This document shows, piece by piece, positions 9,962 through 56,820 of a DNA stretch of 64,000 nt. The notes under the pieces are model-generated. The model worked only from the letters and a program-made list of their open reading frames with translations. It had not been told where the DNA came from and made no database searches. The DNA is taken from assembly GCA_028641055.1 (NCBI GenBank), contig CM054062.1:233318376-233382375 (forward strand), given 5' to 3'. The DNA is from Alopecurus myosuroides (lineage: Eukaryota > Streptophyta > Magnoliopsida > Poales > Poaceae). The first letter of the stretch is position 1, and each line of letters starts with the position of its first letter. Made by a program: the position numbers and the translations under genes.

Positions 9962-10928
9962 ATGGCCAAGTCAGGCTGGGCCAGCTCCTGCGTCACTGCG
10001 GAGGATTGCGCCTGGCTCGTCAATACCCGGCGAGTCCCTCCCGGCGTGGAGTGCCGGGCGCCGGACGGCGAAATCGTGCCGTCCCCGCGCGAAGGGGAGC
10101 GCGTCGTCTTCCTGGCGCATTTCGAGCGCGGGTTCGGGCTACCCACCTCGGATTTCATGAGGAAATTCCTCAACCACTTCGGCATCCAGATGCACCATCT
10201 GCCGCCCAACGCCGTCGTCTTCCTCGCCTACCACGCCGTGGTCTGCGAGGCCTTTCTCGGCGTCAGGCCCACGTGGGAGACGTGGCTCAGGTACTTCCAC
10301 CTGCGCCAACAATCTACCGGGAAGAAAGACTCCGCGGGCGTCGCCCGCGCCACGGACACCGGCTGCGCCATGATGGTGCAGCGGTCCGGGACGAACCACC
10401 CCCGCATCAAGGGGCTGGACTCCGTCAAGCTATGGCAGAAGACGTTCCTCTACGTCAGGAACGTTGCCGCCGCGCCAGGAGCCCCGGTGAACGACAGAAT
10501 CAATCTGCCCGTTTGGTGCAATCGCGCTCCAATCGGGATGTACTGGAAGGACAAGCCCGTCAACGACGACGACGCCATCGAGATGGAGAACCGACTCGGC
10601 TGGCTCAAGGCGGAGGGCCTCAAGAACGACGACCCGGTGGCCTGCTGGATCCAGCGCCGAGTACTGCCCTTGCAGGAGCGGTGCCATCTCATGTGTTACA
10701 TGGGAGGGCCCCGCGACTGCACCAGGACCACCACCATCGAGATCGACAACATCGACGTCCCCTGGCACGCCAGGAACATCTTGACGACAAGCCTTGGCGA
10801 CCACTGGCAATACGGGTTCGTCCCGTACAGCCGTACAAAACCGATTGAGCGGGTACGCCTTCCTTACTTTGCTCTCTGCATACATTTTCCGAGTAGATAA
10901 CTTCTCCTCCTTGCATTAGCTAGCAATT

Positions 10929-11190
10929 GCCTTGTGTTCCGAGTAGGACACTTAGCCGAATTGCATAGGCTTAATGTGCTTCATGCTTGCACGCCTTGCC
11001 GGATAGCCTACTAGAGAACAACTCTTAGGCTCAATGTGCTTCATACTTGCACGCCCTTCCGAGTAATACCTTTTGGCAAACATGCTTAGGCTTAGTATGC
11101 TTTGTGTTTGCACGCCTATCCGGGTAGAATGCTTAGTAAACTGCCTAGGCTTTGTGTGCTTTGTACCTGCACGCCTATCCGAGTAGGATT
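10929..11190 (+). repeat. 60-bp tandem repeat filling intron 1 of the antisense gene
   Basis: About four units with period near 60 bp, each containing AGGCTTAATGTGCTT-like text, TGCACGCC and one CCGAGTAG-like octamer (10939, 11059, 11120, 11179). They occupy most of the first intron (10853-11235). Confidence 0.8.
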
Positions 11191-12222
11191 CCTTCCTGGT
11201 TCTCGGCTAGTTTGTGATCCTTTTCTGCTTTTCAGGTTCTCACTCGCCAGATAATTGAGAGCTGCGAGGTCTTTGAGGGCAACTGGTTTCCTGACCGTGA
11301 GGAGGATGATGTGCCCTCCTTTGATGCTGCGGAGCAGGCCAACCCTACTCGCTCCCCCGTCCCTGACAAGCGCGACGCTCTCCGCACCTGGTCCGATGAG
11401 GATTTTGACGGTAACTACACTGTCACTCTGTTTGCTTCCGAGAAGCTCCAATCCCTCGTGTGCTGTTTCTGATTCTTTCCTCTTTTCTCTTGGATTCCCA
11501 GATGAAGTTGCCGCGGACAAGGACGACGAGGACGAAGACGAGAACGAGGGCGATGCGCCCCTAGTCGTCAAGCCCCTGTCCCTCGCCGCTCCTGAGACCC
11601 GCAAACGGGCCGGTAGCGATGCGCCAGCGCCTCCCGCCAAGCGGAAGAAGCCCGCCGAGAAGAAGGCGGTTGCGAAGAGAACCAGACGAGAGCTCAAGTG
11701 CACCACCGCGTAAGCCCTCTTCTCGGTCGTTTCCCTTCTCGCATGGTATTATTTTCCCAAATTCCTTCTGATTTCTAGCCTCCCTTTCTCTGCAGTCCTC
11801 CTATGGACGCGAATGCAGCTCTCGCGTCCGACCAAGCCAAGAAGAAACCAGTTCCTCTGGTCAACCTGGACGATGATGATGAGGACCGCGACGCCAATGC
11901 TGCTGCTGCCAATCCAGCATAAGGAGCAGCGTCAGAACCAGCAGCACATGACACCGCCGTCCACGACGAGAGACCCCCTTCTCCTCCGGCCAGCAATGCC
12001 GAGGAGAATCAAGACCAAGTGATGCAAGACAGCGCCGCCGCCGAGCGGCCTGAAGCAGAGCAAGAGCAGCCCGCCACAGGGGCTGCTGCACAAGAGAGCC
12101 TCGCTGCCGCGCAGCGAGTAGAAGACACCACCGCCACGGATGCCACTGCTTATCCATTAAGCAGCGTGCAACCGGGCGTGACCCCGAGTAGCGCCCAGCC
12201 AGGAGCTGCACAAGGCGATGGA

Positions 12223-12340
12223 ACTGCGGCGCCACCAACTGCGCAAGGCCCTACCGCACCAACTGCGCAAGGCCCTACCCCGCCAACTGCGCAAGGCCCT
12301 ACACCGCCAACTACGCAAGGCCCTACACCGCCAACCTCCT
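12223..12340 (+). repeat. 24-bp coding minisatellite in exon 4
   Basis: About four copies of GCGCAAGGCCCTACCGCACC-type units encode a repeating TAQGPTPP octapeptide in the antisense protein. Unit number is probably variable between copies of the element. Confidence 0.85.
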
Positions 12341-15168
12341 CCTCGCCGTCGAAGACCAAGGATACATCCAGCCCTCCCGCCGGGCGAGTAACCAGGCAGC
12401 GAGCCTTGGAAGCTCTGAGGGATGAGGTTGTCAGGAGGGAATCCGAGAAGGAAGCTGCTGAGAAGGCCAAGGCCGAGAAGGGAACTGCTGATAAGGAAGC
12501 TGCTGAAAAGGCCAAGGCTGAGCAGAAGAAAACCAAGGCTGAGCAGAAGAAGGCCGAGAAGCAAGATGCCGAGAAGGCAGTCGCCGAGAAGGCGCAGGCC
12601 AAGGCTGACGGGAAGAAGACTGCGGATCCCGAGAAGCAGAGGGTTGAGAAGGAGCAAGCGAAGAAACGGGCCAGAGACCAGGGTACACCCTCAAGCGGAG
12701 CGCTCATGATCCGCGAGTCCGGCCCAATTCCTGCTGCGCTCTCTGCGGACGCTCGCGCTGCTGGCCAGCCTTGCTACCCGGAGTACATGATCGAGGTTAG
12801 CCAACAGCACACAATCGGCTTCCCTCCCAAGGACAAAGCTTTAGCTATCCAGAGGGGAAGGAAAGTTGTAGCCGTGAACTCCCCTCCTCCAGATCCAAGC
12901 CAACCCCAGTCTATCAACATTGCTTCTCGTGGAGTTCAAGACAAACCAATAACCTCCAAGGGTCTTGAACAGGTTTTGGACACTGTTGGCCACATCAACG
13001 CCAGGTGGGACAGCAGGGTTCTCGGAGAGGAGAAATGGCACGGCTTGACCCTTGGCTCCATCGACCACTACCGCGTGGATTGGAACAAGGTTGATCTGGG
13101 ACACAAGCCCATGTCCGTCTCCACCGAGACCGCGACGCTCGCAGCCAAGATGTTCCTGCATCGCAAGAATGCCGAGGACATCGAGCAGTCCTATGCAGTA
13201 AGTCCTTCTTGCCTTTTCCGAGTTGAATTTTCTTCTCTTCTACTCGCCTTTCTTCTTTCTTATGATCACCCCCAGTCCCCGAGATTTGGGTCGAGTAGAC
13301 GGATACTCTCCGAGTAGCCTTCTACTCGGGTCGAATCTTCTCTGCTTTGCCTAACTCATTTTCTTCTCGGTTTTCAGGACAACGTTCTTAAGCGGACCCA
13401 CTTATACCGCATCCTTCTCTGGAACCACTCCATCGCCAGGAGGCGTATCGCCGTAATGGAAAAGGAGAAAGCAATGGCTGAGGCCGCGAGCAAAGATGCC
13501 ACCACCAGCACCCAACAGCTGGCTGAAGTGCAAGGTACGCCTTTAGCTACGCGGTTTCTGCGTTTTATGTTTACGCCCGCTTTTGCTTTCTTATGCGCTA
13601 ACCCTTCCTTCTCTGCAGAAAAACTAAAGGCCTTGGCAGATGAACATGAAAAATGCCGTAGCTTCGTGGAGAACGCCGAGGCCACCATAAAGAGACTTGA
13701 AGGTGAGTTTGCTGTCTACTCGGTGTGACCTTGAATTTGGTTCCTCTCTGCTTATTTACTGACCTCATCTATCTTTTCGCAGAAGATCATAAGTCATTTG
13801 CTGAGGCACACCAAGATTGCGTCAAGCCAGCGGAGGTGGAGAAACAGCTATCCGACCAGGCCACTACTCTGATGAAGGACCACACCACCGAGATGGAGAA
13901 GTTGCAGGTCCAGCTTCAGAAAGAACTCCAAGATGCCGTCAAGATTGGCGCCGAGAGGGACAAGGCAATCGCCGAGAAGGCCAAGGCCGAGACCACTTTC
14001 AAGGCCAAGGAAAGGGCCCTCGAGTCTGAATGTGAGACCTTGAAGAAGACCAACGCTGATCTCTTCGCTCAGATGGATAGCTTGCGTCTGATCCAGGAAA
14101 AGCACATTGGCAATGAGGAGTCCTGGAAAACCAAGCTGCAACAGCTGCGCCGCCAACTGATCGGTAAGTTTTCTCTTCATTGCATCTTTTCTTCTCGGTC
14201 TTGTTCCTTCTCGGCTTCTTCTTTCTTCTCGGTTTTTGATCTTGCCACTTGCTATTTCAGATATCTGGCCTCGTCTTGATTCTTCCTCAGCGCCTACGGT
14301 AGCCAAGGCCCGAGCAGTTCGCCTTTCGCTGGGTGAGCCGATTGACACCAGGGCTGATATCGAGGACAGCTTGCTGGTGCTCAAAGGTTACTTCGAACAG
14401 CTAGCCGGCGTCGGAACTGACCTGATGCATGCGGGCTTTGAGCTCCACCGGCTGTTCTGGCCTCATGACCCCCAGCCAAGAAACATGCGGGATCTCGCCC
14501 ACAAGCTGGAGAACGTGAAGGCCGAGCTGAAAAAATGGCGAGCCTCTGGAGCCCGTGCTGGTGCGGACGTGATGCTTCTCTGCATAGCATCTTGGTATGA
14601 AAACCTGGATATGCAGCGCATCCGCGGGAAGCGCAATGATTCCAAGTGGGAGACGGATGCCGAGAGCGTGGCCTTGCGCAAGCAGATCGCGTATGAGGTC
14701 GCAGAGTGCGCCGAGACGGAGGTCTACATCGAGGGCGTCCCCGAACCAGACACCGAGTACGAGGACGAAGAAGATGATGACGAAGACGAAGACCTTGACG
14801 GCTTCTTCGAATCTCCCAAGGGCAAGGCCGGAAAGGGAAAAGCCACCGTCGTCGCGAGTAGCGATGAAGACGAAGGGGCGCACATCGACAGCGAGCCACT
14901 CGACTTCGGCACCTCCTCAGGTGCTGCTCTCGACGACACGGTGCCCCCTCCTGGCCACGCTTCCTGCTCCTCCTCGGCTCCAGGACCCGTCTCGGTGGCC
15001 ACGGCCACTTCTGATCAGGCCGCCACCGCCCAGACGGGAGCGGATGCCACTCAAGCTAGCACCGAAGGAACAGCTGCTGCGACCGCCACTGAAGAAACTG
15101 CTGCCAAGACCGCCGCCGAGGAAACATCAGCCAAGGCCAGCGCCGAGAACACCGCCTCCTCAACTTGA

Positions 15169-41739: not shown

Positions 41740-41799
41740 GATGCTTCTAAATCAAAAATAGATCCTGGCAGAAACAGCCCGAAACAGAAACACAACGAG

Positions 41800-42366
41800 T
41801 GTCGAGACATCGTAGTAGTTTTCATAGACTGGGGTGCCATGAGACTACGGTAGAGACGTGGGGTAACGGGATAGCGTAGTAACACGGAACACGGGATTTT
41901 ACCCAGGTTCGGTACGTCGCGACAGTACGGCGTACCTACTCCTGCACTTCTCACTAATTGGGACTAAAGCCCGTATAACAGGGTTACAGTGTGAGGGAAT
42001 AGATCTAGCTACTCGACGAGGATGAACTTCTCGGCGAGTTGCGTCGAGCTTAAGCTTGTGAAACTTGAACCTAGAACCTTATGTAATCTATCTCCCGTCC
42101 GGCTTTATATAATAGCCGGATTAGGGCTTACAGAACAAGAAACCTAGAAGACTACGTTTAACTTGTAACTTGGAAAGTAAGGAATCCATCTTCTCCTCCA
42201 AGCCAGATCACGTGGGCCGTGATCCGGGTTCTTCTAGAATCCGGCTTCTGCGCGTCGGACTACTGGGCCGCCCAATGGACCTAAGCCCATTACCATGTAG
42301 GCCACCCTGGTAGTCCGGCTCTTTTGTCTACCATCTTCTATACCCCTATTCAGTATATATCCGACA
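41800..42366 (-). repeat. 3' LTR of element B
   Basis: 567 bp. The minus-strand TATA box (42105-42111) sits in a perfect palindrome, CCGGCT-TTATATAAT-AGCCGG. The purine tract CCTGGGGGCTAC lies just inside at 42367. Confidence 0.94.
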
Positions 42367-42903
42367 GTAGCCCCCAGGAAGGATCAAAACTCTGATACTC
42401 CGCCTTTCGTCAAATACATTTTGTCCGGGAAAACTTGATTCAGCAGTCTTGATTCTTTCTTCTTTCCTTTTGAAGGAGATGGTAACATAAAACTCGGAAC
42501 TATGAAAATCCGGCTCTTCTTCTCGCGATCCTTCGCGGAAAAGGAACTTATGACATCAGCGCTTTAATCATGCTGACGCAAGCGCCGCTTGGTTTCACGC
42601 GGGAAACCCTGCAACGTATCTCTGACAGATTCTCACGAGAAACGAGGAGATAGCCATCATTCCTCTGTCGTTTCGTTTCCCGGATTTTCCGGCGAGCGAC
42701 ACGCGTCGAACATCCAACGGTCAAAAGAGCCGTTGGCACGTATCTAAACGGATATCTGGCTATAAATAGCCATCATCGTCCTCCTACGAAACTTTCCTCA
42801 CTCCCACACTGCCCACGCCATTGACGCAAACGCGAGCTCGAGAGCAAGACCTTGCCCCGACGAACTCTTCGCACGCCGGAGCGCTCACTCGCCACCGAAG
42901 AAG
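42367..42903 (+). other. Promoter region and leader of the antisense gene of B
   Basis: No ORF with support. Contains the purine tract of the sense element at its left edge and the TATA box of the antisense gene at 42761. Confidence 0.5.
42761..42768 (+). promoter_or_regulatory. TATA box of the antisense gene of B
   Basis: TATAAATA in GGCTATAAATAGCC, a canonical plant TATA element 143 bp before the ATG at 42904; element A has TAAATA at a similar distance. Confidence 0.7.
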
Positions 42904-45840
42904 ATGGCCTCTCCGTCGTCCTCACCGGCCCGCGCCTCCATCGACGAACTTTTGGGCGACCTAGATCCACAGCTAGGGTCGCCCAAGCATGCCGGCGGCG
43001 AGCCGGAAAAGATCACGGCATCCACTGCGGACGGAGGAAGCACTTCCGTTGCCGCGGACGTCACAGCATCGAGCGCCACGATAACCCCGCCGTTTGCACC
43101 TGAAACGGCGGAGGAAAAAATCGAGCTCCTTGGCGAAAAACTCGCCGCCGCGAAGGCCGCCGCCGCCGCCGCCGCCGGAGCGGATGAGGAAGAGGAAACT
43201 GCAGGCAACTGGAGTGCCTGCAGTATTCCCCCGGCCCTCCTTCCAAACTTGGAGAAGGAGGGCTTGGTTCTTAAAAAGAAGTGGCGACTCCCGGAAGAGG
43301 AGACCGAACCCATGCCACAAGAGGGCGAAAGGGTGCTTCTTACCTCCCACCTTCTACGAGGTATGGGGCTCCCACCTTCCTCTTTCTTCCTCCAGGTTCT
43401 GTCACATTACAGCATCCAACCTCACAACCTTCCTCCTAATTCCATTCTGTACATGGCCAGCTTCCAGGCCTTGTTCGAAGGTTACCTAGGAATAGAGCCT
43501 AGGTTAGATTTTTGGCTGTATTGTTTTGGGGTCAAGCGTAACTCTTCGGAGGGCGCACTCCCAAATTGCGGGACCATTTCCTTTACTCTTCGGAGATTCC
43601 GAGAGGATTGGTTCCCCAAAATCAAAACCTCAGAATCCGTCAAATTTTGGACGGGTTCTTTTTTCTATCATCCCGACGTGCCTTTTCCTAAAAAGGCCGT
43701 CGGGGTTCCACCTTTTGTGAACTCCGCCGCCGTTCCCCAGGATAACTGGGTAACAGAAGCAGTCCAAGTTCTGCCGCCAGATCTGCTAAAGATCAAGCGG
43801 CGCATCGCCAAGCTCACCTCCATGGATCCGCCTCTAACCGGCATGGACACAGTTCTATGCTGGCTGACTAGGCGGATCCAGCCACTAGCCAACCACAGCG
43901 GCCGTTTCCTGTGTGAATACACGGGAGTCAACGATCCGATGCGGACATCCGCCAAGGATTGGCCCGCAAAGGAACTTAGGCGGCGCATCAACCAGTTGGT
44001 CGCATCGCGCGACCAATACACAGAGAGTCGGCCAATGTACACGGCCGAAAATCCGGTTCCCAAGGTAATTTTTCAGTCATTTGGGTAGAGTTCTATTTTA
44101 TCTCGGATTTCCTAGCTTCTGATTTTGGTTTTTGCTTGTTCGACAGTTCGAGGATCTTTCAGACTCGGACTTGGTGTCTGAGGCTGAGCTGGACGCGCTG
44201 CGCACCGCCGCTACAGGTGGACGCAAGCGCAAGAAGATAATTTCCTCGGATGAAATTATCGATCTTGACGGAATCCCCGTCACCACTTCCAGGTTATTTT
44301 CTTCTGGGTTTTTCTTTTATGGGATCTTTTTCATCCATCTTTGGTGTTTTAACCTTTTCCGGGTTTTTGTTTTTAGCCTGCCCCCCTCCAGCCTGAAGCC
44401 GAAGAAGCTGAAGAAACTCAAGGTTTCTTCCAGCCGAGGCAGCCAACCTTCTCCTGCCGTCGCCCCGGATACGCCAAGCACGAGGGCGAAAGAGCCTACT
44501 ACAGCCCCCACCACCAAGCCCCCGGAGCCCAGCCAGCCCATTGTGTCCGACCCGGACACGAGGGAAAGGGCGGCCCCAGAGGTGGAAAAATTAACTCGGA
44601 CTTTTGACGAGGAAATTCCCACCTTTGACAAGGATTTTAAAGCTATCAATGACGGCTTGGACGCAGCCGGAAATCTCTTCGCGGAATACACGAAAGAATT
44701 CAAAGAAAACTTAGCAGGTTTGCAGCGCATGAGCCAGGTATATAACTCTAGCCCCCAAGCATTAATTAAAATGCGTGCTTTTTGCTTTGATGCTTTTTGT
44801 ACTCATTCTTCTCCTTGCCATGTTTCAGCAAACCTCGGAAGCCATCAACAGGGAAGTTTTCCGGAAGCTTACCATCAAGAATAAAGAAGTTAGAAGTCTT
44901 CTCTCTATTCTTGAAGAAAGGGAAGCAGAGCTGGAATCAGCTAAACTCACATTGTCGGAAACACAAGGTGAACATTTTCCTTTTGAAATTTCCGATTCAA
45001 TCATTTGCTTAAGTTTTTTCCGAGAAGCTAACTAACTCAGATTTTTTCCTTGCTTTTCAGCTGCATTAGCTGAAGCTAAACAAGCAGCAGAAGATTCTGG
45101 CAATGCCGAAATTCTCCGCAAGGAGAATGTTGAGCTTCACAAGAACCTTGTGAAAGCTCAACAAGACTTGGAAGCCAGCAACCTGGCCCTTGGAGTTTCC
45201 AATTCCAAGGCTTCCGAGCAGGCGGAGAAGGACAAATCCACCATCCGGGATTTGACCGATGCTCTAAACCTTCGCCTGGAGGAAGTTTCCGAGATCGACA
45301 AGCTCATTGGTAAATTTCTAACTTATGTACCATTTTTCCATGTTTTACTTTCTCTGGTTTTCTGTCTAACCCTTTTGGGTGTTTTATTGGAAAAAACCAG
45401 GAGATACCCCAGATGGCACTCGGGCTGCAGGCATCCGAGCTTTCGGGGAAACATGGAATTCGATTAAGGCTGCTGGGACGCAGCTCATAGAGAAGTTCCT
45501 TCCCGATAAATCTGGGGAATACTCGGAGGTTGAAAAACTTCCGGGTGCCATCATGGCGGTGGCGGAGTCCAAGGAGTCCTTTCTCCGCTCCGCTGCACGG
45601 GGTGGTGCGCGTATGGCTCTAGGCCTTATGCGCATGCACTACCCTAGTGCCAAATCCTGGCGTGTGGCCACCGGTGTCCCTCAGGGATACACGGATGCGC
45701 AACGAAACACCATTTTTGGTGAAGTTAAGGGCCACGCCACCCAGATTGCCGCCATGGTAAATGTCTCCGTCCACTATCCAGAAGAGGAAGCTCCTCCAAT
45801 CCCCGATGAAGAAAGCAGCGAGGAGGAGTCGGATTCTTGA
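42904..45840 (+). CDS. Antisense 6-exon gene of element B (PF04195-like), intact
   Basis: Exons: 42904-44064, 44147-44292, 44377-44737, 44829-44967, 45061-45309, 45401-45840; introns all GT-AG with phases 0,2,0,1,1, joining into 831 codons without a stop. ATG context is GAAGATGG. After an Ala/Ser-rich, acidic start, residues ~120-200 match the N-terminal domain of the gene in A (QEGERVLLTSHLLRGMGLP, HNLPPNSILYMASFQALFE), resembling PF04195. Exon 2 is acidic with a GGRKRKK basic cluster; exon 3 is Pro/Thr-rich; exons 4-5 form a coiled coil (LLSILEEREAELESAKL); exon 6 has a conserved C-terminal domain and an acidic end (EESSEEESDS). Likely nuclear by inference. It is transcribed against pol. 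Its open frame contrasts with the broken pol of the same element. No known biochemical function. Confidence 0.85.
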
Positions 45841-46457
45841 AAGGTTACCTGGAACCTGGATAGAAAAAGTAGACAATAGGAGCATTACTGTTCTTTCATT
45901 TGTAATCCAAAATGTGATGCTTCTTTTGTATGAATGAAAATTCCGTCGTTTGCAGTTTAAACTATGAAATTACTTTGCAAGTTATTTTGGATTTTACCAT
46001 TCCTTTATCTTCTAAGTTCTCTGGTGTATATGCTTTAACTGTCCTTAGTGTTTGAAATGGCTCAAATAGCATTATAAATCGTTATGCCGAGTAACTGGGG
46101 ACGAACCAATCAGTTTTGAAACTCGGAAACATGAATCATGCTAAAGGCATTTTTACTAACTAGTTCCAGTAACCCAGCATACGCACAATCAGATAAGACT
46201 TAGAGAAACAAGGAAAGTTTTAAGTGAAACTTGGGCACGCAGGCAATTCAAGTTTCCTTTAGCCGTTAAAAGGCTGAAAAATCATTCAGTTATGTAACGC
46301 CGAGTACGCAAGCACAATTCGGGTTAACGTTGAGAAATTTGTAAGATCATTGGGAAATAGATGAGGCGAAAACACTTTGCACTTATAAGAAATATGGATG
46401 ACAGCATTCCGACAACTTTATTTCATGATCTCAAAAGATGTTTACATAAAAATTGAA
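45841..46457. other. Convergent gap between antisense gene and RT of B
   Basis: About 600 bp without ORF. AATGAAAA near 45933 could serve as a poly(A) signal for the antisense gene. RNase H and integrase, present at the equivalent place in A, have been lost. Confidence 0.5.
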
Positions 46458-47437
46458 CTAAGTACGGAAAGGTACATAACTTTCTATACGTTCCCAGGCT
46501 TCCGCAATCCACTTGACTTTGTCGAAATTTTTCAGCAGCTTGAAGAGTGGTAGGGTTTTATCCCCCAGCCGACTAATAAACCTGCTAACGGCTGCAGCGG
46601 AACCCGTCAATCTTTGGACATCTTTTACACATGTAGGCTTTGAGATATTCAAGATTGCCTTGATCTTTTCCGGGTTAACTTCTATTCCTCTGTGAGAAAC
46701 GATGAAACCCAGAAGTTTTCCTGAGGGAACCCCGAATACGCACTTAGATGGATTCAACTTCATCTTGTAAGTACGCAAGTTTTCGAAGGTTTCTTGCAAA
46801 TCCTCAAGGAGTGTATCTTTTTCCTTGGTTACGACAGCGATATCGTCCACGTAAACATGGACGTTTCTGCCAATTTGACTATGCAAACAGCGTTGCATGC
46901 AACGCTGGTAGGTTGCACCTGCGTTCTTCAGGCCAAAAGGCATGGTTACGTAATAGTACGTCCCATACGGGTTATAAAAGAAGTCTTGATTTGATCTTCC
47001 TTTTTCATGCGTATTTGGTGGTACCCGGAGTATGCATCCAAAAAGCATAAAAGCTCAGAGCCTGCAGTGGCGTCTATTATTTGATCGATTCGCGGCAACG
47101 CAAACCTATCTTTCGGACACAACTTGTTCAATCCTGTGTAATCTATACACATTCTAAGAGCAGTGGTGTCTTTCTTTGGCACTAATACCGGATTTTCGGA
47201 CCAATCAGTATGGATTACTTCCTTGATAAAATCCGCTGCTAAAAGCCGGATAATTTCCTTGCCAATAGCCTTCCGTCTTCTTCCGTCAAATCGACGGAGA
47301 CCTTGTTTGACGGGTTTTGATCCGGGAATAACCTTGAGTTGGTGCTCAGCAAGTTCCCTGGGTACGCCTGGCATGTCAGCTGGACACCAGGCGAAAATAT
47401 CCCAGTTCTCACGGAGGAACTTGATGAGCTCGCCTTC
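46458..47437 (-). pseudogene. RT of element B, frameshifted and truncated
   Basis: Begins in frame after the UAG at 47440-47438 with EGELIKFLRENWDIFAW, then MCIDYTGLNKLCPKDRF and LPRIDQIIDATAGSELLC. One base is missing around 46969-46971, where the first frame runs into RMGRTIT. The second frame continues YGTYYYVTMPFGLKNAGAT, YVDDIAVVTKEKD and LNPSKCVFGVPSGKLLGF. It stops after FDKVKWIAEAW at 46458, before RNase H. The polymerase motif YVDD is present but the gene cannot make an active enzyme. Confidence 0.88.
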
Positions 47438-47440
47438 CTA
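47438..47440 (-). promoter_or_regulatory. In-frame UAG between protease and RT of B (putative readthrough stop)
   Basis: Protease ends GTGMTDK, then TAG, then GAA GGC GAG CTC ATC in frame with RT. Position, codon and following bases match element A (19417-19415). Confidence 0.7.
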
Positions 47441-50400
47441 TTTGTCGGTCATCCCAGTCCCTACTACGACAAATTTTGTCGGATCTTTGGGATCTAGGAT
47501 TACCTGTCTTGTATTCTCGGACGCCTTGAAGCTATCTGTTGGCTTCCGAGTTTCTTTTCCTGCCGGCATTTCTTTCGGCGATACCTCCTTGGCTACTTCC
47601 TTCAGTTCCTCCCTTGCTATGACTCTCTGAGCGCAAAGGGCGTTTTCTTTCTCCAACTCGTTTGCCAGCTTGAAATCACCGGCAATGGTGATTACTCCTC
47701 CTTTGGGTCCTGGCATCTTCAGCTTGTTGTAGATATAGCAAGATCTTGCCATAAATTTGGCGAAAGCCGGACGTCCGAGTATTGCGTGATACACGCTTTC
47801 GAACGGCACTACTTCGAAGGATACTTTTTCCTGCCGGAAGTGATCTTTATCTCCGAAGGTGACATCTAGGGAAATTTCTCCTAGGGATCGTGCTTGCCTG
47901 CCAGGAACAATGCCGTGGAAGCGTATATTGCTGTAGTTGAGCTGGGACTCGGAGATCTTCAAGTGCTTTAGTGTATCCAGGTACATTATGTTGATGCTGG
48001 ATCCTCCGTCCATCAGCACTCTTCTTAGCCTAGTGTTTTGAACAATAGGGCTTACAACAAGAGCTTGTGTGCCGGGTTCAGGGATATTTCCGGGATGATC
48101 TGACTGATCCCAGGTTATCGGAGTGTTGGAGTACTTCAAGAATTTCGGGGTCGCAGGAACAACCGCGTTTATTTCTCGAAGTGTTCTTTTGGCCACCTTT
48201 GCTGACGGGGTTGCCAGGAAAGTTAGCATTGCTTCTCCGTCAACTCTCGGAAATTTGGGTTCGCCTTTTCGCTGCTGTTCCTGGATTTTGTCATCAGTGT
48301 CCGATTCACTGTCTTCTTTTTCAGCTTCTGGCTTTTGTTTGGCAGGTTTCCTCTTGGAACCCTTCCCTTTATTTCCGGATCCTGCATTGCCTTTCATATG
48401 CTTGTTTAGCCGGCATTGCGCGTTTGTGTGGGTTGGTTTCCCAAACTGAGAGTGGTGGACGCAGGGTTCCGACTTAATTCTCTCCCATTCTTCGGGAGTG
48501 TAATTGATTGGATCTGGACTGCGGCCTTTCCACTTGTTCACCTTTTCTCCTCCAAAGGCTATGTTAACCTCCTTGGGCTTTGTTGTTGACTCCGGAGTTC
48601 CTTTTTTATCAGAACGAGGTGTTTTCTTGGCCAGTATCAGTGACTCAATATTGCCTCCTCTTGCTCTGATATCGTCTTCGGCTGCAGCATGCTCATTAGC
48701 GGTTGTAAGCATAGATCCGAGATCTTTGTGCTTTTTAGAACCAACCATGAACGGTACAAGTCCGGGTTTTAGGCCATTGACGAAAGCATGCATTGCTTGT
48801 ACGTCAGTTACTCCAGAGCAACTATTCTTCATCGCAGTCCATCTGGAGATGAAATCCACGTATGGTTCGTCTTCAAATTGGGTGCAACGGTTCAGCTGGT
48901 TTATGCTATTTGGACGTTTGTATGTTCCCCGAAAATGCTGAGTAAATACTCTCGCCATATCATCCCAACTGTCGACAGTTCTTGATGGTAAACCATTGAT
49001 CCAATCTCTGGCTCCGTCTAGGAACATTAGGGGAAGAAACTTGACAGCTTCCAGGTCTGTCCCGTTGTTGATTTGGACGGTTGTGTAATAATCTGAGAGC
49101 CAGGTATCCGGGTTTGTACTGCCGGTATACTTTTGGTAGGTTGGACCAACTTTGGCGAAGCCAGAATGCAGGGTTATCCTTCGGATCCTGTCAGTAAAAC
49201 ACTTAGGACCAAAGTATAGATCATCCTTTTCTGCTCTATCAATATGTGCAGAATATCTCCCGGCTGAATGGACAGAAGGGGATCTGCTCCTTTCTTTTCC
49301 ATTGTTGCGCGGACGCGCTTTTCCGGGGTTATCTCTATCTCTTCCGTTGTCACGCCCCCTGGGATTAGGTGGACTCCTGCTCCTGTACCTTTCCTTATCT
49401 TTAGGCGGTGTCCGAGATCTTTCACGTCTGTGAGGTGTATCATATCTTCCAGCTTTTTCAGCTGGGTTTCTCGGAGGTGGCATTATTTTGCCGTCATTCC
49501 GGTGTTTGTCTTCCCGATCGTGTGGTTTATATCCATCTTTCGGGAGATGAGGTCCGGTTCTAGACGCTGCGTCCCGGTTGTCGGGGTTTTTCTTGTCTTT
49601 TCTCGGATCCTCTTTTTTATCCGAATCTCCGGGTTCTTCCGGTCCAGGTGCTCCAGCAGCGCAAGTAACCGTTTTGCAGAGGGCGGAATTATCATGCAGC
49701 CTCCCTGACCGCTCTTGGCCTCGCTGTTGCTGCTGTAATGCTTTTCCTAGGAAAGCATACACCCCTTGGAGTTTTTCCCCGTTGGAGTACAGATCATTGT
49801 TTAGGATGGCGAACGCTGCTTCCGCGTTTTCCGCTGCGGTTTTGTATATTGGTTCGCCCTTGGCATCTTTGCCGTTTAACTGCTTTTGCCAAGATGGGTT
49901 ATAGAACCTTTCTTTCGGCGGCAGTTCTTCCGGTTTTGCAATTCCGGGTAACCTAGTAGGTTTTAAGGCAGATCTATGCTTTCTCTCGTACTCCTCTATT
50001 TCTTCCTTCATGACTTTGATGTCATTATGGGTTTGTTGGAGATGTTGCCGAGATCTAAGCAGTTGTTGCTGTTGCCGTTGGAAAGCTTGTCTCCTGGCTT
50101 CCAGCATCTCAGGGGGTTCATTGGGTCCCACTGGAGTTTGTAATAGCTCTTGCTCTTCCAGTTCTGTCATTGGCGGAGCAGTTATTTCCTTAGATTTCTT
50201 TTCCGCGGGCTTTGTGCCACTAATATCTCCAACTTCCAGGTTTTCATCAGCGAGATCAGCTGACTTTTTCTTCCGGAGTTTGTACTGGAGTTTTTTAGAA
50301 GCACGGTGCTTTTTCTTGGAAGAAGGAGGTTTTTTGACAGGTTCATCTTCTGTCATCTCCTTGACATTAGGGAATATCGGAGAAGTTTCTCCGTCTTCTC

Positions 50401-50878
50401 TCTCTTCCACTGGCGGAGGAGTTTTAGGGCTTTCCTGGCTATCGGCACCCGTTGTATCAGCTGGTTTTGTCATTAGCACTTCATGGAATCCCTCTTGAAA
50501 GGACTTAACTTTTCTTACGAAGGCATCATCGTCTTCGTCTTCGGAGTCGAAATTATCCGATCCGGTTTCCGACTCCAATCTCGCCTCAATGGCGGCAAGC
50601 ACGGACTCTGCTTCCGAGTTCATCGTCTGGTTGACGGATGTCGGATCTTCCGTCTCTGTGACGGGTATTGGTTCTTCTGTCTCTATGACGGGTAGGTTGT
50701 TATCCGCCTCTTGCACGGGATTTCCGTCATCCGTGTTTTCAGCGATTTCGGATTGCACCATGCCGATAAAGTGGGTATCACTGTTTTGTCGGCGATCTGA
50801 GCAAAATCCGGCATCATAGTCGTCTTCGACTGGGTATAGGGCGGGTGGGATAAATTTGCTTCCACCGCAAAACCCCAT
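47438..50878 (-). CDS. Gag-protease of element B
   Basis: Single frame of about 1,146 residues from the first ATG after the PBS (50878; MGFCGGSKFIPP); the frame is open upstream to 51067 only from non-ATG codons. N-terminal part acidic and coiled-coil-rich (LEARRQAFQRQQQQLLRS); an Arg/Ser/Asp-rich region follows (HRRERSRTPPKDKERYRSRS). Gag domain: ARDWINGLPSRTVDSWDD, TQHFRGTYKRPNSINQLN. A CX2HX7HX4C motif (CVHHSQFGKPTHTNAQC) parallels A. Protease: VLMDGGSSINIMYLDTL with D-G-G-S at the catalytic site, FHGIVPGRQARSLG, HAILGRPAFAKFMA. Gag and protease are fused in one frame, unlike A. The frame is intact up to the UAG, so B could still supply particles. Confidence 0.92.
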   Translation of the reverse strand: MGFCGGSKFIPPALYPVEDDYDAGFCSDRRQNSDTHFIGMVQSEIAENTDDGNPVQEADNNLPVIETEEPIPVTETEDPTSVNQTMNSEAESVLAAIEARLESETGSDNFDSEDEDDDAFVRKVKSFQEGFHEVLMTKPADTTGADSQESPKTPPPVEEREDGETSPIFPNVKEMTEDEPVKKPPSSKKKHRASKKLQYKLRKKKSADLADENLEVGDISGTKPAEKKSKEITAPPMTELEEQELLQTPVGPNEPPEMLEARRQAFQRQQQQLLRSRQHLQQTHNDIKVMKEEIEEYERKHRSALKPTRLPGIAKPEELPPKERFYNPSWQKQLNGKDAKGEPIYKTAAENAEAAFAILNNDLYSNGEKLQGVYAFLGKALQQQQRGQERSGRLHDNSALCKTVTCAAGAPGPEEPGDSDKKEDPRKDKKNPDNRDAASRTGPHLPKDGYKPHDREDKHRNDGKIMPPPRNPAEKAGRYDTPHRRERSRTPPKDKERYRSRSPPNPRGRDNGRDRDNPGKARPRNNGKERSRSPSVHSAGRYSAHIDRAEKDDLYFGPKCFTDRIRRITLHSGFAKVGPTYQKYTGSTNPDTWLSDYYTTVQINNGTDLEAVKFLPLMFLDGARDWINGLPSRTVDSWDDMARVFTQHFRGTYKRPNSINQLNRCTQFEDEPYVDFISRWTAMKNSCSGVTDVQAMHAFVNGLKPGLVPFMVGSKKHKDLGSMLTTANEHAAAEDDIRARGGNIESLILAKKTPRSDKKGTPESTTKPKEVNIAFGGEKVNKWKGRSPDPINYTPEEWERIKSEPCVHHSQFGKPTHTNAQCRLNKHMKGNAGSGNKGKGSKRKPAKQKPEAEKEDSESDTDDKIQEQQRKGEPKFPRVDGEAMLTFLATPSAKVAKRTLREINAVVPATPKFLKYSNTPITWDQSDHPGNIPEPGTQALVVSPIVQNTRLRRVLMDGGSSINIMYLDTLKHLKISESQLNYSNIRFHGIVPGRQARSLGEISLDVTFGDKDHFRQEKVSFEVVPFESVYHAILGRPAFAKFMARSCYIYNKLKMPGPKGGVITIAGDFKLANELEKENALCAQRVIAREELKEVAKEVSPKEMPAGKETRKPTDSFKASENTRQVILDPKDPTKFVVVGTGMTDK

Positions 50879-51081
50879 TGCCTCTGCAGTTAGTCCGATA
50901 AAGATGTTAGCAGATCCAATCGGTAACACGCAGGCACTTACCAGGTGGTTTTGCGCCGGTATGTAGGATCCGTTGTCGAGGAAGCGCCCGACGTCGTCGT
51001 CGAATTCCAAGCTTCCGACAGTGATCGATCTTCCAATTCCGCCGAGTATCCCAGATCGGAATTTCACGCCTTACGTCGTTT

Positions 51082-51099
51082 GCCCCACGGTGGGCGCCA
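51082..51099 (-). other. Primer-binding site of element B
   Basis: TGGCGCCCACCGTGGGGC on the minus strand, two bases inside the 5' LTR, identical to A in sequence and spacing although the LTRs differ. Confidence 0.82.
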
Positions 51100-51101
51100 A
51101 C

Positions 51102-51667
51102 TGTCGAGACATCGTAGTAGTTTTCATAGACTGGGGTGCCATGAGACTACGGTAGAGACGTGGGGTAACGGGATAGCGTAGTAACACGGAACACGGGATT
51201 TTACCCAGGTTCGGTACGTCGCGACAGTACGGCGTACCTACTCCTGCACTTCTCACTAATTGGGACTAAAGCCCGTATAACAGGGTTACAGTGTGAGGGA
51301 ATAGATCTAGCTACTCGACGAGGATGAACTTCTCGGCGAGTTGCGTCGAGCTTAAGCTAGTGAAACTTGAACCTAGAACCTTATGTAATCTATCTCCCGT
51401 CCGGCTTTATATAATAGCCGGATTAGGGCTTACAGACAAGAAACCTAGAAGACTACGTTTAACTTGTAACTTGGAAAGTAAGGAATCCATCTTCTCCTCC
51501 AAGCCAGATCACGTGGGCCGTGATCCGGGTTCTTCTAGAATCCGGCTTCTGCGCGTCGGACTACTGGGCCGCCCAATGGACCTAAGCCCATTACCATGTA
51601 GGCCACCCTGGTAGTCCGGCTCTTTTGTCTACCATCTTCTATACCCCTATTCAGTATATATCCGACA
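51102..51667 (-). repeat. 5' LTR of element B
   Basis: 566 bp, differing from the left LTR by one deleted base (ACAGACAAG versus ACAGAACAAG) and one substitution that I could see. Confidence 0.94.
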
Positions 51668-51815
51668 ACGAGAAAACGATATACGGACCTCGGGGGATCC
51701 GGGGGATTATATAGAGAAAAGTTTCATAACGAAAGGAAAGTCCAGGTCTAAAACAAGTCAGAGAGGGGCTCTGGGGCGCCCACACCATAGGCTGGCGCAG
51801 CCAGGGGTGGGCCCG
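51668..51815 (-). other. Element E, 5' leader segment
   Basis: Resumption of E after B, beginning with the duplicated ACGAG. GC-rich leader sequence without ORF, cut at 51815 by the 5' LTR of C. The 5' LTR of E must lie beyond the window or be lost. Confidence 0.55.
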
Positions 51816-53220
51816 TGATACGTCATAAACGTATACCAAATTTCTGATGTTCCATGTTGTTTTCATGTTGTTTCCCACATGTTTTCCTTACACTTTATGT
51901 CAATTTTACACGTTTTCCGGGACTAACCTATTAACAAGATGCCACAGAGCCAGTTCCCTATTTTCTGTTGTTTTTAGTTTCAAAAAAGTTGTTCTGAAAA
52001 TATTCTCAGAATTGGAAAATTTGAAAGAGAGAAGTCCTAAAAGTCCCGGAAGCTTCCAGAAGTCTCGAAGAGCCCCGGAGGGGGGCCACAGGGTGGCCAC
52101 ACCATGGGGTGGCGTGGGTCCCCCTGGTCGCGCCACCTAGGGGCATGGTCCCCCTGGCCACCCCCCGCATCGCCCTTTCGCCCATATATACTCCCGATGC
52201 ATAAACCCTAGGGGAATTGACCTTTTCCGCAAAATACATCTGTAGCTCTGCCGCCGCCGCCGACAAGTTTCGGGGGACAAATCTCTATTCTGGCACCCTG
52301 CCGGGATGGGGAAGTGCCCCCGGAAGCCATCTCCTTCGACTCCACCGCCATCTCCATCGTCGTTGTTGTCTCCTATGATGAGGAGGGAGTAGTTTTCCCC
52401 CGGGGCTGAGGTCTCTACCGGTAGCTATGCGGGTCATCTCTCTCTCCCATGGTGTGATCTTTATGTGATCACGAGCTTTGTAATCTAGTTGAATATGTAG
52501 ATTGATCTTCATCTGTTATGCTACTCAAGTGGTTTTGTTATCTCCGTAAACACTTTGATCACGGGGTAAAGGTGACAGTGTGTGCTCCGTGTGGTTTAGC
52601 CTGATATTTATATCTTGTGCTGGAAGATGAACCTATGAAATTGTGGCGTTTGTTTAGTACTAATTTATGGCGCTCGTAGTGACATTGGGTTGCCCTAGAG
52701 AGGGAATATAGACTTGAGGAGTGTTGTTAAAGCCCTACGCGATGATTAGTGTTCATTATTCGATCGGAGAGTGGTTCGGAGTAGCATAGTGAAGAGATGA
52801 CATTTATGCATTCAATTATGTGATCATTGTTGAGAGTGTCCACTAGTGAAAGAAGGAGCCCTAGGCCTTATTTCCAAGCACTGAAACACCATTTTCCGCC
52901 TGTTCTGCTGCATGTCTGTTTGCTGCCATTTTTATTTCAGATTGTTATTATCGCTTATTATTATCCATATTACTTGCTACTCTCTCTTCTCCGAACTAGT
53001 GCACCTATATACCTGACAACTATATTGGGTGTGTTGGGACACAAGAGACTTCTTGTATCTTGATTGCAGGGTTGCTTGAGAGGGATATCTTTGACCTCTA
53101 CCTCACTGAGTTCGATATACCTTGGGTGATCCACTTAAGGGAAGCTTGCTGCTGTTTTACAAACCTCTGCACTTGGAGGCCCAACACTGTCTACAAGAAT
53201 AGAAGCGTACGTAGACATCA
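51816..53220 (+). mobile_element. 5' LTR of non-autonomous element C
   Basis: 1,405 bp from TGATACGTCATAAACG to GTAGACATCA, matching the copy starting at 56821 over its length up to the point where D interrupts that copy. A PBS follows 10 bases inside. Confidence 0.88.
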
Positions 53221-53230
53221 AGCTCTTTTC

Positions 53231-53247
53231 TAGCGCCGTTGCCGGGG
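53231..53247 (+). other. Primer-binding site of element C (tRNA-Asp)
   Basis: TAGCGCCGTTGCCGGGG; with one mismatch it is complementary to the 3' end of plant tRNA-Asp (CCCCGGCAACGGCGCCA), a common primer of grass gypsy elements. Confidence 0.8.
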
Positions 53248-53357
53248 AGGTAAGGTAAAAGGTACTCACATCCTCTGTGAGTGCTCGAAGTTATTTCCTT
53301 TAGATTCTGCAATTAAATATTTTTGTTTCTTGTTTTTATTTTCACTAGTTAGGCTTA

Positions 53358-54197
53358 ATGGAAAACAACAAAAATATGAGAGGGCTTTATAATCTTTATC
53401 TTGAGTTAGGACATGAAGTGTTTGAAGAGAAAATTAAAAAACCTATGGAACTTTATTTGCATGCTAATAGCAATGTTATTAGTATGAATGCTTTGAACAC
53501 GATTATTTCTAATGCTATGGAAAAGTCTAAGCTTGGGGAAGCTCGTTTTGATGAATATGATATTTTTAGTCCCTCAAGTTTTGAGGTGGAAATTTTCCTT
53601 GATGATACTTTGCCTCCAATATATGATGATTATAATGATTGTGGTATTCTAGTTCCACCTGTTTACAATGATGAATATGATATTTTCAGTCCACCTACAA
53701 TAGAGGAAAATATTAATTATGATTACAGTATGCCTCCTATATTTAATGATTATCGTGATGAGAATAATAATCATAGCTATTTTGTTAAATTTTCTCCCAC
53801 TATTATTAATGAGAATGACTATGCTTATGCGGAGAGTAATAATTCTTTTATGCATGTGGCTCATGATAAGAATGTTTCTTGTGATAGTTATATTGTTAAT
53901 TTTATTCATGATGCTACTGAAAGTTATTATGAGAGATGGAAACATAGTCTTAAACATCTCAACAATATCAAGTTTCCCCTCTTTATGTTGAAAATTTTGA
54001 AGTTGCACTTGTTTTGCTTTCTTATGCTTGTTGCTTTGTGTTTTCATGATTTGTTTTTCTACAAGATTCTTTTTCATAGGATGTGGGTTAGAATTAAATG
54101 TGTTTTATGTTTTCTTCTTGATGCTCTATTTTGCTTCAACAAATATTTCTTATGTGAGCATCTTCTCAAATTATCATGCCCAGCTAAAAGGCTTTAA
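53358..54197 (+). CDS. 279-aa protein of non-autonomous element C
   Basis: Intact frame from ATG 53358 (MENNKNMRGLYNLYLELG). The N-terminal two thirds are acidic, with repeats of the type FDEYDIFSPSSFE and YDDYNDCGIL, each about 40 residues apart. Then comes a conserved core (FMHVAHDKNVSCDSYI, DATESYYERWKHSLKHLN) and a C-terminal hydrophobic section with one or two possible membrane spans (LFCFLMLVALCFHDLFFY). Element D carries a diverged copy in the same place and orientation relative to its PBS. There is no zinc knuckle, protease, RT or integrase. The function is unknown; conservation between two elements suggests selection or shared recent origin. Confidence 0.7.
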   Translation: MENNKNMRGLYNLYLELGHEVFEEKIKKPMELYLHANSNVISMNALNTIISNAMEKSKLGEARFDEYDIFSPSSFEVEIFLDDTLPPIYDDYNDCGILVPPVYNDEYDIFSPPTIEENINYDYSMPPIFNDYRDENNNHSYFVKFSPTIINENDYAYAESNNSFMHVAHDKNVSCDSYIVNFIHDATESYYERWKHSLKHLNNIKFPLFMLKILKLHLFCFLMLVALCFHDLFFYKILFHRMWVRIKCVLCFLLDALFCFNKYFLCEHLLKLSCPAKRL

Positions 54198-56804
54198 AGA
54201 AAAGCACTTCTTGGGAGATAACCCATGTTTTTATTTTTGCATTGTTTTTCTCTTTTTATTCGAGTCAAGGGGTTCCATACTACCGTAGCAACTCCTTTGT
54301 ATCTTTATTTTCACGTTTTAGTAGTGCCAAGTAAAGTTTCTGACGAAAGTTGGAGTTGGTTTTCGGATTTGTGCGCAGAAAACAGATTTCTGCTGTCCAC
54401 CGTAAAACATCGTATAAAATCCTGGAAGATCAGAATGATCTGAATTTTTTTGTGCTTATTTCCCAGCTAATTCTGAAACTTTTCTTAGTTGACCACGTTT
54501 TGATTTGAACAACATAAGATTTTTGAAAAAAAAATCATCTTTACCTGTTGTTCTGATTTGACAGATTTCTGCTAATAATTGCATTTGCCTCTTAATCTCT
54601 TTCTTTTGGTGTTATTTTGAGAAAAAGAGTTTTAAAAAAAAGTTGTGACGGTAGCTAATGTGTTTATGAGTGTTAGTATTGTGTTGAAACTGAGCCATGT
54701 GAATTTATTATTTCGATTGCACTAACGTTGTTAATGAAGATTGTGAGAAGTTTGGTGTGAAGGAAGTTTTCAAGGGTCAAGAGAAGAGGATGATATGATG
54801 TGATCAAGAAGAGTGGAAAGCCTAAGCTTGGGGATGCCCCGGAGGTACATCCCAGAAAATTCCAAGAATACTTAAGCATCTAAGCTTGGGGATGCCCAAG
54901 GCATCCCCTTCTTCATCAACAATTTATCAGGTCACTTCTAGTGAAACTATATTTTTATTCAGTCACATCTTATGTGCTTTACTTGGAGCGTCTTTTTTTT
55001 GTTTTCAGTTTGATTAGTTTTCTTTGTTGTAATAAATGGTTGGATCTTATCATACTTGTGTGGGAGAGAGACACACTCCATTTTTATTGCTTAGAACACT
55101 CTAGTTTTCATTCTTATTGTTCTATGAGTGTTCACTTTTTGCTAAACTGCGTTTAGCCTTTGTTTTCATGCATCTCTTATTCAGAGCTGTTAGTTTTAAT
55201 AGTGTTATGTGAGTACTCTCATGTTTGCTTGCTGTAGCATGTAGAGAATTTTTGTTAAAACATATTTTGTATGGTGCTTGTTGGGAAAAGAAACTGCTGC
55301 TTGATGTAAAATTTATAACAATGCTAGTAGAAGCTTGTATAGATTGTGGCTAGAACTTTTTCATGCCATGCTAAATGTTATTTTAGTTTTAAAGCCTTGC
55401 GATTATTGAGTAGCATGAATAGCCTTAAGTAGCTGAGAGAATTTAATATGTCTTGAAAGATTCATGAGTTGTTCTTGTCATAGTAAAGCATCAATATATG
55501 GTAATCTCTTTCGAATGATTTATTTGGTTGACTTGGCGCATGCTCACACCATGTTTATGACTACAAACCAGTCGCGAATAGCCTCCATGACCACTTAGTT
55601 TTTGAACTTGTGATACTTCTTATGTTTTAATTAATGATGCTTATGTCGCTATGCATTTATGGCTCTTATGCTCTCTTGATTTGTCGCTCCCAGTCTTTTG
55701 CTAGCCTCCACCTGTACTGAGTATGAGCTCTACTCGTGCATCCAAACTCCCTTAAATAAAAGTTTTTCCCGTTGTGTACACAATACCTACCTACATGTGG
55801 TATTTAACTTCCATTCCAAGTAAATTGCTCATGTGTTACCTTTAAAACCTTCAAAATTATTCCTACTTTGTGTTCTTGTTTTTGCTCATGAGGACATCAA
55901 TAGAGAATCTTTATCTCACTTGTTGATTGGATTTCACACCATGGACTAGTGGCTTCATCCGCTTATCCAAATGATAGAAGAGCTGGCAGCGGGGTGCCCA
56001 GCCCCAAATTAATACAAACAAATTCTCTTCACTATTTGTGCCCCTAATCACATCAGTCAAAGCATAATTGTGTAAACAAAAGAGAAAGAGGGATGACCTT
56101 CTACACCAGTTGTGTCCTTCACCATGGGATCCGCTCTTGTGAATCCAGTTGGCTTGTGATGTAATGTATTGTCTGTTTACCATTCGTTGACACTAGCATA
56201 CACCTCTCCTAAAATATAGACATTCCTCCACAAATGTCAAACTTTTAATACTTCTGTTTAATAAAATAAAAAGCTCTAGCACATGAGTGTTCCCTGCTTC
56301 CCTCTGCGTAGGGCCTTTATTTTACTTTTATGTTGAATCTCCATCTTCTAACTTTATGCACAGTTGAGAGAGCATTTTCGCCATTCTGAGTTTTATGTGC
56401 ATTTTCCCATAAACATCAATAATTACTTCATGATGTGATATTATTTGTTCCTAAATTATTTGTTCTATTCTTCCTCATGAACTTTGAAAGTGTCCTGGCA
56501 TTTATGTTTTGTCCCACTCTTAAGGACTAGCGAGATACCACTTTGCCATGCTTTCTCCATACCTGAAACAAACGTTTATCTTTCTTTGCATTATTATCCA
56601 TGATCCTTCATTTAAGATACTCTTCGTGATGCAAAGTAATTGCTATGCTTTATTATTAAAGTTTTATTTATCATGACTGTGTTTAAAGTTTTATGATCTC
56701 AGCGTGCATATGCTTTTACATTAGATTGACCAGGTTTATGTTAGTAGCATGTCACCTCAGAAATTATTATTTCATCGTTTACCTACTCGAGGACGAGTAG
56801 AAAC
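54198..56804 (+). other. Internal non-coding region of element C
   Basis: 2.6 kb without supported genes. TAAGCTTGGGGATGCC occurs at 54823 and 54881, and TAAGCTTGGGGATGC again as the polypurine tract at 56805-56819. A stretch at 55870-56290 resembles, inverted, the internal part of E near 40070-40460 (TGTGTTCTTGTTTTTGCTCATGAGG, CAGCGGGGTGCCCAGCCCC type phrases), so C and E share parts of their interiors. Confidence 0.55.
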
Positions 56805-56820
56805 TAAGCTTGGGGATGCT

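What the first reader, a model, noticed from the sequence alone, without database searches (positions are those of the whole stretch)
42904..45840. Intact spliced gene on the antisense strand of a retrotransposon whose pol is dead
Element B keeps a six-exon, 831-codon gene (all introns GT-AG, phases 0,2,0,1,1, own TATA box) running against gag-pol, while its RT is frameshifted and RNase H and integrase are gone. Introns cannot be kept in a gene copied only through its own sense-strand RNA unless they are on the opposite strand: sense genomic RNA carries the reverse complement of these introns, which the spliceosome does not remove. So antisense placement is what lets an intron-bearing gene travel in a retroelement. 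The intact frame suggests selection on this gene rather than on pol.
Basis: partly seen in the sequence, partly recalled or inferred. Interest (0 to 1): 0.9.

Follow-up and report, generated by a model that had tools for sequence, protein, structure and literature searches.

The report
Spliced antisense gene in grass retrotransposon
A grass retrotransposon carries, on the strand opposite to its own genes, a gene with five introns that selection has kept intact across relatives; antisense genes are known in this lineage, but their conserved introns were not described in the papers that could be read.

Summary
42904-45840 (+) is a six-exon, 831-codon gene (GT-AG introns, phases 0,2,0,1,1, TATA box, PF04195 domain) antisense to gag-pol in a young LTR element (41800-51667). 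By its measurements the element fits 'Alopecurus myosuroides 2' of Vicient 2025, a recently active Retand cluster listed without RNase H and integrase and with an antisense TRP28 ORF. Across copies all six exons vary mostly at third codon positions, introns do not; dN/dS between subfamilies is about 0.2 and introns diverge like synonymous sites. Genome-wide, the unspliced exon1-intron1 junction matches 1,599 places; the spliced exon1-exon2 and exon5-exon6 junctions match none, as expected if only sense RNA is copied. Introns 1-3 recur in a family 48-58% identical in exon 1; intron 1 also shows in unspliced database ORFs and Lolium gene models. No RNA evidence was available; transcription and splicing are inferred. 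Known kind; the conserved multi-intron structure is the new part.

The parts
41795..41799 (.). target-site duplication ACGAG, left
41800..42366 (-). 3' LTR of element B (the element reads on the minus strand)
   Evidence: 565 of 567 columns identical to the other LTR
42758..42771 (+). TATA box of the antisense gene, GGCTATAAATAGCC
   Evidence: identical in 24 of 24 copies compared
42904..44064 (+). exon 1 of the antisense gene (start codon at 42904)
   Evidence: third-codon-position bias
43336..43536 (+). PF04195 (Transposase_28, TRP28) domain inside exon 1
   Evidence: E 2.4e-16, residues 145-211
44065..44146 (+). intron 1, phase 0, GT-AG
44147..44292 (+). exon 2
44293..44376 (+). intron 2, phase 2, GT-AG
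44377..44737 (+). exon 3
44738..44828 (+). intron 3, phase 0, GT-AG
44829..44967 (+). exon 4 (139 nt)
   Evidence: the same 139-nt length in distant relatives L040 and L041
44968..45060 (+). intron 4, phase 1, GT-AG
45061..45309 (+). exon 5
45310..45400 (+). intron 5, phase 1, GT-AG
45401..45840 (+). exon 6 with stop codon
46458..47437 (-). RT core, split over two frames in this copy; RNase H and integrase absent after it
47438..47440 (-). in-frame TAG between protease and RT, invariant in 19 of 19 copies
47438..51070 (-). gag-protease open frame (1210 codons, stop to stop), PF03732 gag
   Evidence: the protease assignment is by position and recall
51080..51101 (-). primer-binding-site-like sequence beside the 5' LTR; the same 22 letters lie beside element A's LTR
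   Evidence: which tRNA it matches was not tested
51102..51667 (-). 5' LTR of element B
51668..51672 (.). target-site duplication ACGAG, right
9962..15168 (+). comparison: eight-exon antisense PF04195 gene of element A (LTRs 8362-9270 and 22847-23755), phases 0,1,2,0,1,1,1, one in-frame stop in exon 4

Best explanation
Element B is a young copy of a non-autonomous Retand-like (Ty3/gypsy) retrotransposon family with an accessory gene between pol and the 3' LTR, read from its own TATA promoter against gag-pol. The gene's precursor RNA is spliced (six exons) to an mRNA for an 831-residue PF04195 protein. The sense genomic RNA carries the reverse complement of the introns, which the spliceosome does not see, so reverse transcription copies the introns faithfully, while the antisense mRNA is not copied back. 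Shown here: gene structure, coding constraint, intron evolution at about the synonymous rate, conserved intron positions, no intron-less match at the two junctions scanned genome-wide. Inferred: transcription, splicing, and that the protein is a nuclear regulator of the element's cycle (by analogy with Grande GENE23). The missing RNase H and integrase are presumably supplied in trans by an autonomous relative, which was not found here.
For: Intact spliced frame with all splice dinucleotides GT-AG in 9 of 21 copies; 99 of 102 assessable introns GT-AG; in those 9, exon length differences are 0 or 3 nt while intron lengths differ by any number. Variants at codon positions 1/2/3: exon 1 39/28/80, exon 2 7/5/15, exon 3 16/13/40, exon 4 10/2/17, exon 5 16/2/27, exon 6 15/10/20; no consistent bias in the introns. 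Shared-variant dN/dS-like 0.20 (bootstrap 0.14-0.29), no shared stop. B against L018, L019, L030, L031, L032: dN/dS 0.19-0.22, dS 0.160-0.233, intron K 0.165-0.212. Junction counts: 1,599 unspliced and 0 spliced at intron 1, 0 spliced at intron 5. In a family 48-58% identical in exon 1, intron 1 is at the same residue and phase in 6 of 6 loci, intron 2 in 5 of 6, intron 3 in 4 of 6. V (a GTN codon) follows exon 1 in 16 of 40 database homologues, every unspliced one that aligns cleanly across; 8 Lolium multiflorum models splice there. Introns 48% T, exons 20%.
Against: No RNA data: transcription and splicing are unproven. 12 of 21 copies are broken, truncated or have a changed splice site. The copies are the best matches to part of exon 1 and so lean to young ones. 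The close pair B-L011 gives dN/dS 0.35 on few changes. The genes are mosaics of subfamilies, so some selection may have acted in autonomous relatives. Reverse frame 1 also gives 0.29, as its register shares the third positions. The automatic intron test failed for introns 4 and 5 in 6 of 6 relatives. No fold match tells the function.
Confidence: 0.82

Rival explanations
1. The antisense transcript itself, not the protein, is the functional product: it pairs with genomic RNA and tunes the element through dsRNA and siRNA.
For: Proposed in Vicient and Casacuberta 2020 (PMC7264820, parts 1-2 of 3 read). A TATA box is conserved.
Against: An RNA role does not predict third-codon-position bias in six separate exons, exon indels in threes among intact copies, or dN/dS near 0.2. 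It may act in addition.
Confidence: 0.08
2. The gene is a passenger: constraint was set in autonomous relatives and B-type elements merely carry a copy, with no benefit in the non-autonomous lineage.
For: Gene segments are mosaic between subfamilies. The RNase H-integrase stretch is absent from 20 of 20 copies that hold RT, B included, and no match to it was found in the sister-subfamily loci L034-L036.
Against: No stop in the gene is shared among copies. gag-PR is also constrained within this family.
Confidence: 0.25
3. A host gene captured recently, with its introns, by a single copy.
For: Intron-bearing, host-like gene with a TATA box.
Against: 1,599 genomic places carry its junction 1; all 21 copies read carry the gene or its start in the same place; Vicient 2025 reports TRP28 in 97% of clusters and no similarity outside TEs.
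Confidence: 0.02

Closest known systems
Retand cluster 'Alopecurus myosuroides 2' (and 3b) in Vicient 2025, PMC11963269
   Same: LTR 564 bp against 567/566 here; internal region 8,734 bp against 8,735; pol-3'LTR 4,102 bp against about 4,091; gag and protease listed as present, RNase H and integrase as absent, antisense TRP28 ORF present; recently active.
   Different: The paper calls ORFs with ORF Finder; 'intron' occurs 0 times in its held main text, and parts 1-3 of 5 describe neither a six-exon gene nor selection on it. Its cluster sequences were not compared.
maize Grande gene23 (antisense, nuclear protein, own promoter)
   Same: Antisense gene between pol and the 3' LTR with its own promoter, as summarised in PMC7264820.
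   Different: The original paper was not held; whether gene23 has introns was not learned. No sequence comparison was made.
Ogre elements (introns in the sense transcript)
   Same: Plant LTR element with functional introns (passage in PMC12786077).
   Different: There splicing of the element's own transcript makes subgenomic RNAs; here the introns lie on the antisense strand and read CT..AC in genomic RNA.
Element A in this window (8362-23755)
   Same: Antisense PF04195 gene with seven GT-AG introns; part of exon 1 31% identical to B over 232 residues; the end of exon 1 falls in the same alignment column as B's; B's phase series 0,2,0,1,1 is contained in A's 0,1,2,0,1,1,1.
   Different: Eight exons; RNase H and integrase regions present; one in-frame stop in the antisense gene; pairwise alignments did not place B's introns on A's in any of three modes.

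Membership tests
Retand lineage (Ty3/gypsy, Tat) | RT placed with Retand by phylogeny | not tested
   No tree was built; RT of the sister-subfamily loci is 60.5-61.4% identical to element A's RT.
Retand lineage (Ty3/gypsy, Tat) | antisense ORF with TRP28 (PF04195) between pol and the 3' LTR | tested here: met
   E 2.4e-16, plus strand, between RT and the 3' LTR
Retand lineage (Ty3/gypsy, Tat) | additional RNase H domain between RNase H and integrase | tested here: inconclusive
   B lacks the whole stretch; element A has RVT_3 (PF13456) between RT_RNaseH and rve
Non-autonomous cluster 'A. myosuroides 2' | LTR, internal and pol-3'LTR lengths | tested here: met
   567/566, 8,735 and about 4,091 bp against 564, 8,734 and 4,102; the cluster's own sequences were not compared, and the species is inferred
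Non-autonomous cluster 'A. myosuroides 2' | no RNase H and no integrase | tested here: met
   in 20 of 20 copies that hold RT, B included, the match ends at residue 319 of element A's RT-RNase H and no integrase matches; positive control on element A met
Spliced protein-coding gene | coding constraint confined to the exons, in the spliced frame | tested here: met
Spliced protein-coding gene | spliced mRNA observed | not testable with these tools
DNA transposon transposase (the Pfam name Transposase_28) | transposase fold or catalytic residues | tested here: inconclusive

The most novel reading that the evidence does not exclude
The antisense TRP28 gene of Retand elements is an ancient intron-bearing gene that entered the element as DNA, before grass Retand families diverged, and whose introns have been held in place ever since by antisense orientation: a general route by which a retroelement keeps a nuclear-type, spliced gene. 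The introns may be kept because splicing marks the accessory mRNA for export and translation and keeps it distinct from the genomic RNA.
Probability: 0.4. Interest if true: 0.68.

Novelty: new variant of a known kind. Interest (0 to 1): 0.52.

Why it matters
LTR elements replicate through RNA that the spliceosome can act on, so sense-strand introns tend to be purged. A conserved multi-intron gene on the antisense strand, with about 1,600 intron-containing matches at junction 1 and no spliced match at the two junctions scanned, is a natural counterpart of the reverse-orientation trick used in laboratory retrotransposition reporters and intron-bearing vectors (recalled). It also implies that ORF-finder surveys understate these accessory proteins: here exon 1, the longest, holds 1,161 of 2,496 coding bases. 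Correct gene models are needed before asking what TRP28 proteins do.

Tried and rejected
Rejected: 'RT is dead in this family' (open to its end in 14 of 19 copies). Rejected: recent capture of a host gene by one copy. Not claimed: intron homology between B and element A beyond the end of exon 1; none of three pairwise alignment modes put B's introns on A's, so only the phase series and the exon 1 end in the multiple alignment are reported.

Led nowhere: PDB sequence search (best E 0.013, taken as chance), Foldseek, VIA-align 2. The whole-protein search found one homologue, perhaps because only the 7,987 candidates sharing most words were scored; a search by region found two; the exon 1 query of element A found 38. 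An autonomous partner was not found: three sister-subfamily loci also showed no RNase H beyond RT and no integrase. Copies of element A were never obtained. The original papers on Grande gene23, Retand and extra ORFs were not held. The spliced junctions 2, 3 and 4 were not scanned genome-wide (junction 3 asked, unanswered), nor the unspliced junction 5 (not completed). The tblastn step returned nothing and was not used; only the letters it printed were.

Full report
WHAT IS THERE. Exon 1 carries PF04195 (E 2.4e-16). The gene lies antisense in an LTR element whose LTRs (41800-42366, 51102-51667) differ by one substitution and one indel and are flanked by ACGAG on both sides, so this insertion is very recent (about 0.07 Myr at 1.3e-8 per site per year, a recalled rate). 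A gag-protease frame and an RT core are on the minus strand. Searched with element A's proteins, B and the 19 of 20 other copies that hold RT match up to residue 319 of the 493-residue RT-RNase H piece and nowhere in the RNase H-integrase piece; element A itself, as control, matches over both (L020 holds no RT).

WHICH FAMILY. The genome has 3.57 Gb in 3,227 contigs; C1-C7 are 352-782 Mb. Vicient 2025 (PMC11963269; parts 1-3 of 5 read, passages) lists clusters in Alopecurus myosuroides; its 'Alopecurus myosuroides 2' has LTR 564, internal 8,734, pol-3'LTR 4,102, no RNase H, no integrase, TRP28 yes. B has 567/566, 8,735 and about 4,091. Species and cluster are inferred from these numbers, not from sequence. 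That paper states that 97% of clusters have antisense TRP28 ORFs. So the antisense gene and the missing RNase H-integrase are known; introns are not mentioned in its held main text.

IS IT A REAL GENE. Of 40 best genomic matches to part of exon 1 (39 besides the window), the first 20 others were fetched and compared with the window copy, 21 in all. Nine of 21 have an intact spliced frame with all dinucleotides GT-AG: B, L010, L011, L013, L014, L019, L024, L025, L027. L021 has an intact frame but a changed intron 1 acceptor. L020 is truncated. The other ten have stops or frame shifts. Of 102 assessable introns 99 are GT-AG; the exceptions are in L009, L021 and L023. With L020 left out, 20 copies give shared variants of 84 synonymous, 54 nonsynonymous, 0 stops (dN/dS-like 0.20), and singletons of 105, 113 and 6 (0.34); Fisher p 0.022 for the difference in N to S. 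Introns carry 0.159 shared variants per site, close to synonymous sites (0.141) and far from nonsynonymous sites (0.029). Each exon shows third-position bias in the frame set by splicing; the introns show no consistent one. For shared variants the wrong forward frames give 1.09 and 1.99; reverse frames give 1.28, 0.29 and 1.63, the low one being the register that shares third positions. Against sister-subfamily loci L030-L032, dN/dS is 0.19-0.20 with dS 0.18-0.23 and intron divergence 0.19-0.21; L018 gives 0.19, L019 0.22, the close L011 0.35 on 47 changes, and L031 against L030 0.24 (the last 60 nt of the gene were left out there). L030-L032 have open frames over the part read.

ARE THE INTRONS CONSERVED. 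A family 48-58% identical to B in exon 1 (L037-L042, the six loci fetched of 90 matches) has intron 1 at the same residue and phase in 6 of 6, intron 2 in 5 of 6, intron 3 in 4 of 6 (L039 only across a 381-nt gap with a weak match beyond it); the automatic test failed for introns 4 and 5 in all six. A closer look at three of them shows exon 4 of exactly 139 nt followed by a GT in phase 1 in L040 and L041; L042 has 138 nt and stops. Of 40 homologous proteins from public data (A and B set apart), 16 have valine right after exon 1, the residue that a GT splice site reads as in phase 0; 8 Lolium multiflorum gene models read EAKDRFP from that point; 1 is off by one residue (P0019); 4 do not align there (P0021, P0036, P0038, and P0030, which reads AKDRFP after a gap); 11 do not reach it. 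Element A in the same window has an eight-exon antisense PF04195 gene with phases 0,1,2,0,1,1,1 and one in-frame stop.

HOW INTRONS SURVIVE. On the sense strand the introns begin CT and end AC, so they should not be spliced out of genomic RNA (established splice-site rule). A genome-wide scan, up to 2 mismatches, found 1,599 places with the exon1-intron1 junction (786 forward, 813 reverse, control 0), 0 with the exon1-exon2 junction and 0 with exon5-exon6. For junction 5 no genome-wide unspliced count could be had. A spliced copy with more than 2 mismatches in the 24 bases would be missed. Among 42 held loci, some of which overlap and not all of which are B-like, none has any of the five spliced junctions and 24-32 have the unspliced ones (up to 3 mismatches). 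The antisense mRNA is therefore not detectably reverse-transcribed and inserted.

Of 19 copies, B and L022 are frame-shifted in RT, with different lengths; 14 have RT open to its end, and 3 have it in register with an internal stop, one of those stops shared by L015 and L021. The gag-PR frame has no stop in 12 of 19, two of these read only in part. Shared variants in gag-PR: 94 synonymous, 19 nonsynonymous, 0 stops (0.06, 19 copies); in RT: 55, 31 and 1 (0.16, 17 copies, B and L022 left out). The antisense gene (0.20) is not singled out by selection.

MECHANISM. TATA box (identical in 24 of 24 copies compared), spliced antisense mRNA, 831-residue protein with an N-terminal PF04195 domain of unmatched fold (model of residues 100-387, pLDDT 73.5) and, by eye only, a coiled-coil-like C-terminal half and basic stretches. 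By analogy with Grande GENE23 (nuclear, own promoter; PMC7264820, parts 1-2 of 3) the likeliest role is a nuclear accessory factor helping expression or transposition; this step is inference (about 0.4). Why a non-autonomous family keeps gag, protease, RT and this gene under constraint is open: cis-preference, or re-supply by recombination, for which the mosaic genes are evidence.

LIMITS. No RNA data; copies sampled from the best matches; species inferred; key older papers not readable. 'Not described' rests on the ten paper searches and on what was seen of the papers: parts of PMC11963269 and PMC7264820, passages of PMC6317226, PMC12786077, PMC6431247 and PMC11655881, listings of the rest.

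Absence of RNase H and integrase was tested in all copies; colinearity is now stated as 13 of 20 whole copies.

Noticed in passing
window 47438-47440 (-) and 19415-19417 (-): An in-frame TAG separates protease and RT in both element B (invariant in 19 of 19 copies, with an identical 24-base context) and the distantly related element A, which shares AAATAGGAA; this looks like programmed stop-codon readthrough.
   Followed up: partly
window 9962-15168 (+): Element A (LTRs 99.89% identical over 909 columns, TSD CCTTA) carries its own eight-exon antisense PF04195 gene with one in-frame stop.
   Followed up: partly
L024 and L025: Two neighbouring copies lie end to end and share an LTR (LTR-internal-LTR-internal-LTR), judging from their coordinates.
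   Followed up: no
L018, L019, L020, L011, L012 against window 42700-46000: Antisense genes are mosaics: blocks of 94-99% identity to B alternate with blocks of 76-92%, suggesting template switching between subfamilies.
   Followed up: partly
L041 around positions 3415-3553: A gap bounded by GT and AG splits the region matching B's exon 3 near residue 524, a possible extra intron absent from B: intron gain or loss inside an antisense gene.
   Followed up: no
window 51816-58036 and 58041-64000: Two further LTR-like direct-repeat pairs follow element B (51816-53038/56821-58036, 92%; 58041-58547/63507-64000, 96%, cut by the window's end); their internal open frames were not identified.
   Followed up: no
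window 3875-8362: A large inverted repeat (arms about 1.9 kb, 81% identical) ends at 8362, where element A's left LTR begins.
   Followed up: no
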